A DNA stretch of 64,000 nucleotides, taken from NCBI RefSeq assembly GCF_019802125.1, contig NZ_JAHVHT010000001.1, forward strand, positions 868,001 through 932,000, in the 5' to 3' direction. Positions 17,443 through 38,732 of this stretch are shown here, piece after piece (position 1 is the stretch's first letter; each line of letters opens with the position of its first letter). The position numbers and the translations under genes were made by a program. This DNA comes from Tateyamaria omphalii. GTDB lineage: Bacteria > Pseudomonadota > Alphaproteobacteria > Rhodobacterales > Rhodobacteraceae. The notes beneath the pieces are model-generated. The model saw nothing but the letters and a program-made list of their open reading frames with translations, was not told the origin of the DNA and made no database searches.

Positions 17443-17808
17443 GTGGAAGAGATGTTGCGGGAGTATCTCCCCATTCTCGTGTTTCTGGCCGTCGCCATTG
17501 GCCTCGGTCTTGTCCTGATCCTCGCTGCTGTCGTTCTCGCCGTGCGCAACCCGGACCCCGAAAAGGTGTCGGCCTACGAGTGCGGCTTCAACGCCTTCGA
17601 CGATGCGCGGATGAAGTTCGATGTGCGGTTCTACCTCGTGTCGATCCTCTTCATCATCTTTGACCTCGAAATTGCCTTCCTCTTTCCCTGGGCCGTCGCG
17701 TTCCAGGATGTGAGCATGGTGGGCTTCTGGTCCATGATGGTGTTCCTGGGCGTCCTGACCATCGGCTTTGCCTATGAGTGGAAAAAGGGAGCTTTGGAAT
17801 GGCAGTAA
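17443..17808 (+). CDS. nuoA: NADH-quinone oxidoreductase subunit A
   Basis: The 121-residue membrane protein has three hydrophobic helices (about 8-33, 63-85, 90-112) and the conserved loop [32 protein letters not shown], whose Cys marks the quinone-site loop of this subunit (written in parts: Y-E-C-G-F and F-D-V-R-F-Y). It starts with GTG behind AAAAGGAG. It is the first subunit of complex I, and its end overlaps the nuoB start. Confidence 0.95.
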
Positions 17809-18344
17809 CCGACACCGGTTCGCTCGGCCCCGCCTATGCAGGTGGCGACAAAGACCACGCCACCCAAGCCTTGAATGCCGAATTGCAGGACAAGGGTTTC
17901 CTGCTCACCTCAACCGACGACATCATCAACTGGGCGCGCACCGGCTCGCTGCACTGGATGACCTTTGGTCTGGCCTGCTGCGCGGTCGAGATGATGCACA
18001 CCTCCATGCCGCGCTATGACCTTGAACGGTTCGGCACGGCACCCCGCGCGTCCCCGCGCCAGTCCGACCTGATGATCGTGGCTGGCACGTTGACGAACAA
18101 GATGGCGCCCGCCCTGCGCAAGGTCTACGACCAGATGCCCGAGCCGCGCTACGTGATCTCGATGGGTTCCTGCGCCAATGGCGGCGGCTACTATCACTAC
18201 AGCTATTCCGTGGTGCGTGGCTGCGACCGCATCGTACCGGTCGACGTCTACGTCCCCGGCTGCCCACCCACGGCCGAGGCGCTGCTTTACGGCATCCTGC
18301 AGCTGCAACGCAAAATCCGCCGCACCGGCACCATCGTCCGCTAA
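17799..18344 (+). CDS. nuoB: NADH-quinone oxidoreductase subunit B
   Basis: The 181-residue protein carries the ligands of the terminal 4Fe-4S cluster N2: the tandem Cys in [19 protein letters not shown] and [12 protein letters not shown]. It sits at the quinone-binding interface with NuoD. I chose the ATG inside the nuoA 3' end ([10 protein letters not shown]), since an earlier in-frame ATG would extend into nuoA without conservation. Confidence 0.96.
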
Positions 18345-18353
18345 GGAGCGCAC

Positions 18354-18953
18354 ATGTCCGAAGCAATGACCGAACTTGGCACCTATCTCGAAGCCAAGCG
18401 CCCCGATTGCGTGCTGGCCTGGGATGTGACCTATGGCGAGCTGAACGTCGATGTCGCCCCGTCCAGCCTGACCGGTTTTGTCGAGTTCCTGACGACCGAC
18501 AGCACCTGCAAGTTCTCCACGCTCGTGGACATCACCGGGGTGGACTACCCGGGCCGGGCCAAGCGGTTCGATGTCGTCTACCACTTCCTGTCGATGTACC
18601 AGAACCACCGCATCCGCCTGCGCGTGTCGATCCGCGAAGATCAGATGGTGCCCTCGATCACCGACATCCACCCCTCGGCCAACTGGTTCGAACGCGAAGT
18701 GTTCGACATGTTCGGCATTCTGTTCTCGGGCCACCCGGATTTGCGGCGGATCCTGACGGACTACGGCTTCCGCGGCTACCCGCTGCGCAAGGACTTCCCG
18801 ACCACGGGTTACACTGAAGTGCGCTATGATGAAGCCGAAAAGCGCGTCGTCTACGAACCTGTGTCGCTGGTTCAGGAGTATCGACAGTTTGATTTCATGA
18901 GCCCTTGGGAAGGGGCCGAGTACATCCTGCCGGGTGATGAAAAGACAGACTGA
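18354..18953 (+). CDS. nuoC: NADH-quinone oxidoreductase subunit C
   Basis: The 199-residue 30-kDa-type subunit of the peripheral arm has the family signature [18 protein letters not shown] and GYPLRKDFP. It is separate from NuoD, as usual in alphaproteobacteria, rather than fused as in E. coli. It begins nine bases after nuoB. The next gene on the strand is not a complex I subunit. Confidence 0.95.
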
Positions 18954-35744: not shown

Positions 35745-37291
35745 TGGACAATATCCTTTCCATCACCACTTTCATGCCCGCGCTGGCGGCCCTGATCTTG
35801 GCCGTGTTCCTGCGGGGCGAGGATGAGGCGGCGCAGCGCAATGCCAAGTGGGTGGCGATGGCCACCACGGTGATCACCTTCATCGCGTCGCTGTTTATTC
35901 TGTTCGAGTTCGACCGCAACGACACCGGCTTCCAGTTTGTGGAAGAGGGCGAGTGGATCATGGGCCTGACCTACAAGATGGGGGTCGATGGGATCTCCAT
36001 TCTGTTCGTGATGCTGACAACCTTCATGATGCCGCTGGTTATCGCGGCCTCGTGGTCGGTGACGGACCGGGTCAAGGAGTACATGATCGCCTTCTTGCTT
36101 CTGGAAACGCTCATGCTGGGCGTGTTCATGGCGCTGGACCTGGTCCTGTTCTATCTGTTCTTCGAGGCCGGTCTGATCCCGATGTTCCTGATCATTGGTA
36201 TCTGGGGCGGGGCGAACCGCATCTATGCGAGCTTCAAGTTCTTCCTCTACACCTTCCTCGGTTCTGTGCTGATGCTGGTGGCGATGGTTGCGATGTATGC
36301 GGATGCGGGCACCACGGATATTGAAGCGCTCTTGAACCACCAGTTCGGGAACGAGACGTTCAGCTTGCTGGGTATTCAGATCGTGGGCGGGATGCAGACG
36401 ATCCTGTTCCTGGCGTTCTTCGCCAGCTTCGCCGTCAAGATGCCGATGTGGCCGGTCCACACCTGGTTGCCCGATGCCCACGTACAGGCGCCGACCGCAG
36501 GGTCGGTCGTGCTGGCGGCAATCCTTCTGAAGCTCGGTGGTTACGGGTTTATCCGTTTCTCCTTCTCCATGTTCCCGGTTGGATCCGAGGTGATGGCGCC
36601 GCTGGTTTTGTGGATGTCAGCGATTGCCATCGTCTACACGTCGCTCGTGGCGCTCGTGCAGGACGATATGAAGAAGCTGATTGCCTATTCATCAGTCGCC
36701 CACATGGGCTTTGTGACTATGGGTATCTTTTCGGCCAATCAGCAGGGGCTGGATGGCGCGATCTTCCAGATGCTGAGCCACGGCTTCATCTCTGGCGCGC
36801 TCTTCCTGTGTGTGGGCGTTATCTATGACCGGATGCACACGCGCGAGATCGATGCCTATGGCGGTCTTGTGAACAGGATGCCAGCCTATGCACTGATCTT
36901 CATGCTGTTCACCATGGCGAATGTGGGTCTGCCCGGCACCTCCGGTTTCGTGGGTGAATTCCTGACGCTGATGGCGGTGTTCCAGGTCAACACCTGGGTG
37001 GCCGCGGTTGCGACAACCGGTGTGATCTTCTCTGCGGCCTATGCGCTGTGGCTCTACCGCCGGGTGGTGATGGGCGACCTGATCAAGGAAAGCCTGAAGT
37101 CGATCACCGACATGACAGGCCGGGAAAAGGCGATCTTTGCCCCGCTGGTGGTGATGACGCTGCTGCTTGGTGTCTACCCGGCGCTGATCCTCGACATCAT
37201 CGGGCCGTCGGTGGCCGCCCTTGTGACACAATACGATACGGCGCTCGCCGCGGCTGAGGCTGCGACGCAAGTCGCGTCGAATGGGAACTGA
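35744..37291 (+). CDS. nuoM: NADH-quinone oxidoreductase subunit M
   Basis: The 515-residue antiporter-like subunit has about 14 membrane helices and the motifs [22 protein letters not shown] (in parts F-F-E-A-G-L-I-P), [19 protein letters not shown] and [15 protein letters not shown]. The conserved Glu and Lys of the proton channel are in place. The start overlaps the nuoL stop by one base. Confidence 0.95.
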
Positions 37292-37295
37292 GAAC

Positions 37296-38732
37296 ATGTC
37301 TGCTGATCTGACCATCATCCTGCCCGAGATCCTGCTGGCTGTCTTTGCCATGCTGGGCCTGATCGGGGCGGTCTACACGTCCAAGGACGATCTTGCCTCT
37401 CCACTCCTTTGGGCGACATCCGCCGTCTTCCTTGCCGTCGCCGCATGGATCGGGTTCACGGGTGAGGGGACGAACGTGGCCTTTGGCGGCATGTTCGTCG
37501 ATGACGCCTTTTCGCGCTTTGCCAAGGTGACGATCCTTGTGTCCGCCGCTGCCGTTTTGCTGATGAGCGAAGGGTACATGTCGCAGCGCGGCCTTTTGCG
37601 CTTTGAATACCCGATGCTGGTGGCATTGGCCGCCGTGGGCATGATGACCATGGTGTCGGCGGGCGACCTGATGGCGCTCTACATGGGCCTCGAGCTGCAA
37701 TCGCTCGCGCTTTACGTGGTTGCGTCGTTGCGCCGTGACAGCGTCAAATCAACCGAAGCCGGTCTGAAATACTTCGTGCTGGGCGCGTTGTCTTCGGGTC
37801 TGCTGCTCTATGGTGCGTCGCTGGTCTACGGTTATGCAGGCACCACGCTGTTCTCGGGGATCGTTCAGGTCGCGGAAGAGGGCGTGTCGCTTGGCCTGCT
37901 CTTCGGCCTTGTCTTCCTGATGGCGGGCTTTGCCTTCAAGGTCTCTGCCGTGCCGTTCCACATGTGGACGCCGGATGTGTACGAAGGCTCGCCCACGCCG
38001 GTCACGGCATTCTTCGCTACGGCGCCGAAAGTCGCGGCCATGGCGCTGTTCGCACGCGTGATGCATGACGCCTTTGGTGGGGCCATTGCCGACTGGCAAC
38101 AGGTCATGGCGCTCTTGTCGGTGCTGTCGATGTTCCTCGGTGCATTTGCGGCGATCGGTCAAACCAACATCAAGCGACTGATGGCGTTTTCGTCCATCGC
38201 GCATATGGGTTACGCCCTGATGGGCCTTGCCTCCGGCACTGCGCTCGGGGTCGAGGCGATGCTGGTCTACATGGCAATCTACGTCACCATGAATATCGGC
38301 ACCTTCGCTTTCATCCTGATGATGGAAAAAGACGGCCAGCCTGTGGTCGAGATCTCGTCGTTGAAGATGTACGCCAAGCGCGAGCCGGGCAAGGCGTGGG
38401 CCATGCTGTTTCTGATGTTCTCGCTCGCGGGTGTGCCGCCGATGCTTGGGTTCTTTGGCAAACTCTACGTGCTGCGCGCGGCCTATGAAGGCGGGCTTGT
38501 CTGGCTTGCCATTGCTGGCGTGATCGCATCCGTCATTGGTGCCTACTATTACCTGCGCATCGTCTACTACATGTTCTTCGGCGAGACGCAGGATGAGGGG
38601 CTGAATGGCGGCAAATCCCCGATCCTTTGGGCGATGCTGATGGGGTCGGCGGCTGTTATGCTATTCGGGATTATCAACATGTTCGGCGTGGACAGTGTGG
38701 CGGCGGCTGCGGCGCTCACATTGGTGAACTAG
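37296..38732 (+). CDS. nuoN: NADH-quinone oxidoreductase subunit N
   Basis: The 478-residue antiporter-like subunit has about 14 membrane helices and the motifs [24 protein letters not shown]-like [17 protein letters not shown], and [17 protein letters not shown] chose the ATG at MSADLTI, four bases after the nuoM stop, over one inside nuoM. It is the last complex I subunit in the cluster; a weak hairpin CCC-TTC-GGG followed by six T lies between it and birA. Confidence 0.95.

What the first reader, a model, noticed from the sequence alone, without database searches (positions are those of the whole stretch)
17443..38732. nuo cluster carries thirteen non-subunit genes, many exported or membrane-bound
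Between nuoA and nuoN I count thirteen extra coding regions: a sulfotransferase, six small membrane or lipid-anchored proteins, three secreted proteins, DUF3291, two CMD-family proteins and a 64-residue acidic protein (categories partly overlap). Tight spacing and start-stop overlaps indicate cotranslation with the subunits. Paracoccus and Rhodobacter nuo operons are known to contain unidentified reading frames, but this density and the bias to periplasmic or membrane proteins suggest a set of accessory subunits or assembly factors. Which ones are conserved cannot be told from one genome.
Basis: partly seen in the sequence, partly recalled or inferred. Interest (0 to 1): 0.7.

Follow-up and report, generated by a model that had tools for sequence, protein, structure and literature searches.

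The report
Photosynthesis-linked gene inside nuo operon
The respiratory complex I gene cluster of this phototrophic bacterium carries about fifteen extra genes; four are kept at fixed places by nearly all relatives examined, one belongs to a family found built into the photosynthetic reaction centre, and most others come and go.

Summary
The extra genes are real: 15 candidate frames (one doubtful), not 13, lie between nuoA and nuoN of a Tateyamaria-like, pufLM-bearing genome. In 117 other clusters of the family they fall into three classes. (1) Four fixed slots: DUF5337 (116/116), CMD (113/117), DUF5333 (108/117), a lipoprotein (97/117). (2) X3, a membrane hairpin plus helix-hairpin-helix gene between nuoE and nuoF, homologous to a chain solved in RC-LH1 of Dinoroseobacter shibae (protein-O) and Rhodovulum sulfidophilum. 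Window included, it is present in 28/28 phototrophs without a PufX hit, 21/25 with one and 36/64 non-phototrophs. A turn motif occurs only in phototrophs (post hoc 22/49 v 0/36; random new genera 8/30 v 0/30). One MAG without X3 in nuo has a copy after puf-dxs. (3) Patchy or private genes. 'Complex I subunits' is not supported: passages on the solved Paracoccus complex I name none, though a supplementary table was not seen. X3 points to photosynthesis, but its retention in non-phototrophs means a second role or recent loss of phototrophy. Protein-O and its nuoE-nuoF address were already published; I found no report of the distribution, PufX split, motif or relocation.

The parts
18990..19871 (+). 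X1 sulfotransferase-like protein, nuoC-nuoD; patchy
   Evidence: Pfam PF13469 28.5 bits v cut-off 27; 30/112 clusters; no counterpart in L002
19872..20042 (+). X2 56-aa membrane protein; patchy
   Evidence: 29/112 clusters; 61% identical in L002
21510..22661 (+). nuoE with C-terminal HHH extension (residues 287-381)
   Evidence: 64% identical over 95 residues to the C-terminus of X3; NF009040 590 bits
22688..23437 (+). X3, protein-O family: TM hairpin (1-60), flexible linker, HHH domain
22790..22804 (+). X3 turn motif W35-x-x-x-Q39 (seen only in phototrophs)
   Evidence: W35 in the turn between model helices 5-33 and 37-60, Q39 in the first turn of the second
23441..23659 (+). X4 DUF5337, 2-TM; near-universal in family
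   Evidence: PF17272 3e-20; 118/121 genomes; 0 over cut-off in 141 other alphaproteobacteria, two weak hits below it
25006..25410 (+). X5 small secreted protein, nuoF-nuoG; near-private
   Evidence: 0/117; weak family of 3 loci incl. window
25443..25886 (+). X6 DUF3291; patchy
   Evidence: PF11695 1e-42; 41/117
25901..26305 (+). X7 lipoprotein; patchy
   Evidence: lipobox LTAC by eye; 54/117
26425..26826 (+). X8 DUF5333 secreted protein; conserved slot before nuoG
   Evidence: PF17267 4e-39; 108/117; 0 in 141 other alphaproteobacteria
28845..29225 (+). X9 lipoprotein; near-private
   Evidence: 3/117; 89% identical in L002
29222..29602 (+). X10 lipoprotein with invariant C15, C62, C118; conserved slot before nuoH
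   Evidence: 97/117; 58% mean column identity in 36 sequences
30648..30842 (+). X11 64-aa acidic protein; near-private
   Evidence: 1/117; dN/dS 0.05 v L002
31336..31719 (+). X12 CMD-family protein, second copy
   Evidence: PF02627 57 bits; two CMD frames in 10 of 117 clusters
31712..32131 (+). X13 CMD-family protein, conserved slot before nuoJ
   Evidence: PF02627 59.5 bits; CMD in 113/117 clusters
32734..33204 (+). X14 secreted protein, TTG start; patchy
   Evidence: 14/115; 82% identical in L002
33561..33671 (+). X15 36-aa TM frame, doubtful gene
   Evidence: 1/114; no counterpart in L002 or L003

Best explanation
The Rhodobacteraceae nuo operon is a shared expression platform, not a set of complex I subunits only. 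Between the subunit genes sit (a) four family-specific genes kept at fixed places (DUF5337, CMD, DUF5333, lipoprotein X10), most likely envelope or assembly helpers of the respiratory membrane; (b) X3, a protein-O homologue which, in phototrophs without PufX such as this one, inserts its two-helix hairpin between the reaction centre and the closed LH1 ring, its periplasmic turn (W35, Q39) facing the L subunit and its HHH domain hanging into the cytoplasm; (c) genes that come and go. Shown here: gene content, conservation, homology of X3 to RC-LH1 chains, association with phototrophy, the phototroph-only turn motif, one copy beside puf-dxs. Inferred: that X3 of this organism is in its RC-LH1, that the motif makes the contact, one transcript, and the role of the four fixed genes.
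For: X3 matches RC-LH1 chains of D. shibae and Rhodovulum sulfidophilum by sequence and by model; the D. shibae gene also lies between nuoE and nuoF, and the paper puts the hairpin's periplasmic end at L Trp266-Met270. The window genome has two adjacent PF00124 genes, taken as pufL and pufM, and no PufX hit. X3 hairpin, window included: phototrophs without PufX hit 28/28 (14 genera), with PufX 21/25, non-phototrophs 36/64; Fisher 8e-6 for phototrophs v others; tree-based LR 12.2, reached by 0 of 60 null simulations; LR 15.9 for PufX-less phototrophy, not simulated. Named set, slot of 400 nt or more between nuoE and DUF5337: without PufX 13/14, with PufX 10/12, all phototrophs 23/26 v non-phototrophs 25/41. 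Turn motif W..[MLFIVP]Q[AGS]: 20/28, 2/21, 0/36; new random genera 8/30 v 0/30, p 0.005. MAG G056 (L062) lacks X3 in nuo but has hairpin+HHH just after dxs on the contig with pufL, pufM and pufX. Fixed slots.
Against: 36 of 64 non-phototrophs keep X3, P. denitrificans also has it, and 29 of those 36 keep the Cys pair: RC-LH1 cannot be its only role, or phototrophy was lost recently. HIMB11 (L015) is a phototroph with neither PufX nor any X3 hit. Of 20 photosynthesis regions searched only G056 has an X3-like gene; G056 has PufX, and its copy lacks the Cys pair and the turn motif. The motif was chosen after seeing the sequences and is missing in 8 of 28 PufX-less phototrophs. In PufX-bearing phototrophs the hairpin is no better conserved than in non-phototrophs over most of the range (22% v 25% at core 80-84%). 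PufX status rests on a Pfam hit; divergent PufX may be missed (G131 has one below the cut-off). No function was tested for X4, X8, X10 or X13.
Confidence: 0.7

Rival explanations
1. One reading: the extra genes encode accessory subunits or assembly factors of complex I.
For: Fixed positions among subunit genes and 83-100% retention of X4, X8, X10 and CMD; X4 in 118 of 121 genomes, phototrophic or not; low dN/dS. The supplementary mass-spectrometry table of the purification paper, not seen, may list some of them.
Against: Passages of the P. denitrificans complex I structure paper name none of them, although that species carries X3, X4, X8, X10 and two CMD genes. Patchy and private genes cannot be general subunits. 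X3 homologues are in RC-LH1 structures.
Confidence: 0.2
2. X3 is first of all a respiratory (complex I or quinone-pool) protein that RC-LH1 recruited in phototrophs; its use in RC-LH1 is secondary.
For: nuo location in all classes; 36/64 non-phototrophs keep it, 29 of these 36 with the Cys pair against 7/21 in PufX-bearing phototrophs; its HHH domain is 64% identical to the NuoE C-terminus.
Against: Absence concentrates in non-phototrophs, and phototrophs without PufX hit have it 28/28; tree-based association; copy beside puf-dxs.
Confidence: 0.35
3. The nuo operon is only a tolerant insertion site; extra genes are kept because they are well transcribed there and have no common theme.
For: Summed gaps vary from 1069 to 9629 nt; many families of few loci; X1, X5, X15 without counterpart in the nearest relative.
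Against: Four families stay at the same place in 83-100% of clusters, and X3 follows phototrophy.
Confidence: 0.3

Closest known systems
Protein-O of D. shibae RC-LH1 (PDB 8yy9_O, 9lts_A) and chain a of Rhodovulum sulfidophilum LH1-RC (PDB 9wqv)
   Same: TM hairpin with Cys near both ends (D. shibae), linker, HHH; D. shibae gene also between nuoE and nuoF
   Different: Hairpin 42% identical to 8yy9_O; presence in RC-LH1 of this organism not shown
Paracoccus denitrificans nuo cluster URFs
   Same: X3, X4, X8, X10 and a CMD pair at the same places; published URF count is recalled, not read
   Different: No profile hit for X1, X2, X5, X6, X7, X9, X11, X14, X15; its X10 frame is 258 aa; a 60-aa frame between nuoH and nuoI is not shown to be related to X11
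Protein-U/Y of Rhodobacter sphaeroides RC-LH1
   Same: Per the D. shibae paper, a hairpin at a similar place between RC and LH1
   Different: That paper calls the sequences quite distinct; no HHH domain (recalled)
Carboxymuconolactone decarboxylase family (PF02627)
   Same: X12 and X13 over the family cut-off; best solved relative 2af7
   Different: No CxxC pair: X12 has one Cys, X13 none, so not AhpD-type peroxidases; far below the PcaC equivalog cut-off

Membership tests
Protein-O family (RC-LH1) | N-terminal two-helix TM hairpin | tested here: met
Protein-O family (RC-LH1) | Linker and C-terminal HHH-like domain | tested here: met
Protein-O family (RC-LH1) | Cys at both cytoplasmic ends of the hairpin | tested here: met
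   C10 and C60 in the window protein; disulfide itself not tested
Protein-O family (RC-LH1) | Gene between nuoE and nuoF | tested here: met
   D. shibae
Protein-O family (RC-LH1) | Present in purified RC-LH1 | not testable with these tools
   genome has two adjacent PF00124 genes; needs proteomics or cryo-EM
Complex I accessory subunit (X3, X4, X8, X10, X13) | Stable presence in purified complex I | not testable with these tools
   orthologues not named in passages on P. denitrificans complex I; its supplementary table not seen
Complex I accessory subunit (X4) | Co-occurrence with the nuo cluster throughout the family | tested here: met
   116/116 covered gaps, in clusters that were found by their DUF5337; 118 of 121 genomes; 68/68 in loci found by NuoG
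Complex I assembly factor | Needed for assembly | not tested
   no data; deletion needed
AhpD-type CMD peroxidase (X12, X13) | CxxC redox pair | tested here: not met
   translations
Sulfotransfer_3 (X1) | Pfam score over the curated cut-off | tested here: met
   28.5 v 27 bits

The most novel reading that the evidence does not exclude
The nuo operon encodes both ends of a physical link between respiration and photosynthesis: NuoE (complex I) and X3 (RC-LH1) each carry a flexible linker and the same HHH domain (64% identical), and HHH-HHH pairing or a common partner brings complex I and RC-LH1 together for quinone exchange.
Probability: 0.1. Interest if true: 0.85.

Novelty: new member of a known kind. 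Interest (0 to 1): 0.52.

Why it matters
The published protein-O had unknown function, and its gene's address inside the nuo operon was an unexplained aside. Its spread here (28 of 28 phototrophs without PufX hit in the even sample, many non-phototrophs), the phototroph-only turn motif and the copy beside puf-dxs turn it into testable statements: X3 should matter most where LH1 has no PufX, W35 and Q39 should matter for the contact, and X3 of non-phototrophs must do something else or be a leftover. The four fixed slots name the genes worth deleting first in the Paracoccus complex I model.

Tried and rejected
X6 (DUF3291) followed phototrophy strongly in the even sample (tree-based p 1e-5) but not in the named set (11/27 v 18/44, p 1): not claimed. 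X14 showed p 0.018 in the named set, uncorrected: not claimed.

X5 as a DUF5333 duplicate: the Cys pattern looked alike, but BLASTP found no alignment: not claimed.

Cys pair as a phototroph marker: it is at least as common in non-phototrophs (29/36 v 27/49): rejected.

HHH domain as proof of a complex I link: NCBIfam models of phasin PhaH and of ribosomal L21 and S2 also match this domain, below their cut-offs, so it is not specific.

A genus-level whole-genome search with the hairpin profile gave 72/99 phototrophs v 84/157 others, p 0.0025; it can miss divergent hairpins (G126 only at E 0.0014), so it is weaker support than the nuo-cluster count.

A second hairpin-profile hit in G056 (L204, E 7e-4) lies in a 193-aa frame that does not look like X3: set aside. 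A phasin-like start of a further HHH gene was guessed by eye and not borne out by Pfam.
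Full report
What is there. The window is G000:C1:868001-932000 of a 4.49 Mb genome; its nearest named relative among the loci found is Tateyamaria sp. ANG-S1 (L002, NuoG 96% identical). The fourteen nuo genes run from 17443 to 38732. Several overlap their neighbours by 4 to 8 nt. Pfam names six over its cut-offs: Sulfotransfer_3, DUF5337, DUF3291, DUF5333 and two CMD.

Conservation. I compared two sets. The first is 80 named Rhodobacterales loci around nuoG. 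The second is an even draw of 121 genomes of the order, window included, all of the same family; 118 carry DUF5337, and the 117 besides the window were fetched around it, so X4 is present in them by selection. Counting only clusters where both flanking subunit genes are found, and leaving out the window, the second set gives: X4 116/116, CMD 113/117 (two copies in 10), X8 108/117, X10 97/117, X3 hairpin 84/116, X7 54/117, X6 41/117, X1 30/112, X2 29/112, X14 14/115, X9 3/117, X11 1/117, X15 1/114, X5 0/117. The first set gives X4 68/68, X13 or a CMD relative 71/76, X8 66/74, X10 64/79, X7 42/74, X6 31/74, X2 19/62, X1 13/62, X14 7/76. There X12 and X13 are not separable, because the profiles cross-hit, and the X3 count of 45/68 rests on a profile that includes the HHH domain. 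DUF5337 and DUF5333 have no over-cut-off hit in 141 other alphaproteobacteria (two weak DUF5337 hits lie below the cut-off), three family members in the same draw being positive. A family between nuoD and nuoE, absent from the window and lipoprotein-like by eye, occurs in 48/116. The window's extra DNA ranks 95 of 111: rich, not exceptional.

X3. The 249-aa protein between nuoE and nuoF has a two-helix membrane hairpin, a long low-confidence linker and a helix-hairpin-helix domain. By sequence it matches the 'Reaction center protein O chain' 8yy9_O (1.7e-59), 9wqv_a and 9lts_A. The structure search titles these as RC-LH1 of a marine photoheterotroph and of D. shibae (8yy9, 9lts) and LH1-RC of Rhodovulum sulfidophilum (9wqv). 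The D. shibae paper, of which I saw passages, reports that the gene lies between nuoE and nuoF, that its function is unknown, that the hairpin sits between RC and LH1, and that its periplasmic end meets L Trp266-Met270. So neither the family nor its address is new.

Link with phototrophy. In the second set with the window, and without G091 (not covered), the hairpin is found in 49 of 53 phototrophs (two PF00124 genes) and 36 of 64 others (Fisher 8e-6). A model of correlated evolution on a tree of six Nuo proteins gives LR 12.2 (chi-square p 0.016); none of 60 simulations under independence reached it, extreme draws having been discarded. It was one of eight families tested that way, so the chi-square value alone would not survive a correction. 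Splitting by PufX (PF11511), it is in 28/28 phototrophs without a PufX hit, window included, and 21/25 with one; of the four misses G126 has an 805-nt gap and a weak hit beside DUF5337. In the named set, judged by a slot of 400 nt or more rather than by the hairpin itself, phototrophs without PufX have 13/14, the exception being HIMB11, and those with PufX 10/12 (PufX); all phototrophs 23/26 (one ambiguous), non-phototrophs 25/41, Fisher 0.009 without the ambiguous one. The two sets share some genomes.

Turn motif. After looking at the hairpins I wrote the motif W..[MLFIVP]Q[AGS]. It is in 20/28 PufX-less phototrophs (9 of 14 genera), 2/21 PufX-bearing ones and 0/36 non-phototrophs (0 of 19 genera), with 8 changes on the tree. 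To check it I drew at random 60 of the 121 new genomes whose hits one search listed (weaker matches were not listed), 30 of 54 phototrophs and 30 of 67 others: 8/30 against 0/30, p 0.005. One drawn sequence (G362) is D. shibae protein-O by sequence. In the model of the window protein W35 sits in the turn and Q39 in the first turn of the second helix. That this turn makes the published contact with L is inference.

Relocation. The MAG of L062 (G056) has no room for X3 in nuo (25-nt gap), but has a hairpin plus HHH frame 45 nt after dxs on the contig that carries pufL, pufM and pufX, same strand. Pfam confirms dxs; the HHH part is 56% identical over 75 residues to that of the window X3, and the hairpin is matched by profile (E 9e-6). 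This copy lacks the Cys pair and the turn motif, and the organism has PufX. Among 20 photosynthesis regions examined it is the only such case. It is a MAG, though these genes share one contig.

What speaks against a purely photosynthetic role. More than half of the non-phototrophs keep X3, most with the Cys pair, and P. denitrificans has it. Either phototrophy was lost recently in many lines, or X3 has a second role. At equal core divergence the hairpin is somewhat better conserved in PufX-less phototrophs than in non-phototrophs (median 32% v 25% at core identity 80-84%), but not in PufX-bearing ones there (22%) (pairs are not independent).

Complex I. The passages I saw of the P. denitrificans structure paper name no product of these genes among the subunits, though P. 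denitrificans carries X3, X4, X8, X10 and two CMD genes (its DUF5333 frame was missed by my gap caller but found by profile). The passages of the purification paper name three known extra subunits, a PIMT and likely contaminants, and point to a supplementary table that I did not see. Weak or transient partners, and assembly factors, are not excluded. X10 is a strongly conserved lipoprotein with invariant C15, C62 and C118, modelled with confidence but without a telling fold match.

Literature. No held paper names DUF5337 or DUF5333. In the listings of searches I saw no paper on the spread of protein-O, and in 25 and 39 none on the nuo URFs; most subscription papers are not held. The URF counts of Paracoccus and Rhodobacter are recalled.

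Noticed in passing
L201:1459-2043 (G056:C342): X3-like hairpin+HHH gene directly downstream of dxs, on the same strand as pufL, pufM and pufX, in a MAG whose nuo cluster lacks X3.
   Followed up: yes
L008:4616-5596, L009:6088-6858, L016:6313-7125, L061:6486-7091: A further gene with a C-terminal HHH domain and an N-terminus without clear Pfam family, between X3 and DUF5337 in some clusters.
   Followed up: partly
nuoD-nuoE gap of relatives, e.g. L016:3515-3823: A lipoprotein-like family absent from the window, in 48 of 116 clusters; more common in phototrophs (31/53 v 17/64), tree-based p 0.16.
   Followed up: partly
even sample, nuoC-nuoK gaps: Phototrophs carry more extra DNA in the cluster than non-phototrophs (median 5772 v 3489 nt); not tree-corrected.
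   Followed up: no
G098, G184, G189: The only 3 of 121 genomes without a DUF5337 hit; G098 still has an X3 hairpin hit.
   Followed up: no
G000:C7:63122-64817 (L224): The two PF00124 genes of the window's genome lie on an 80-kb contig, possibly a plasmid.
   Followed up: no
L023:2890-3063: Between nuoE and DUF5337 a 57-aa frame looks by eye like a decayed HHH remnant of X3 in a phototroph MAG.
   Followed up: partly
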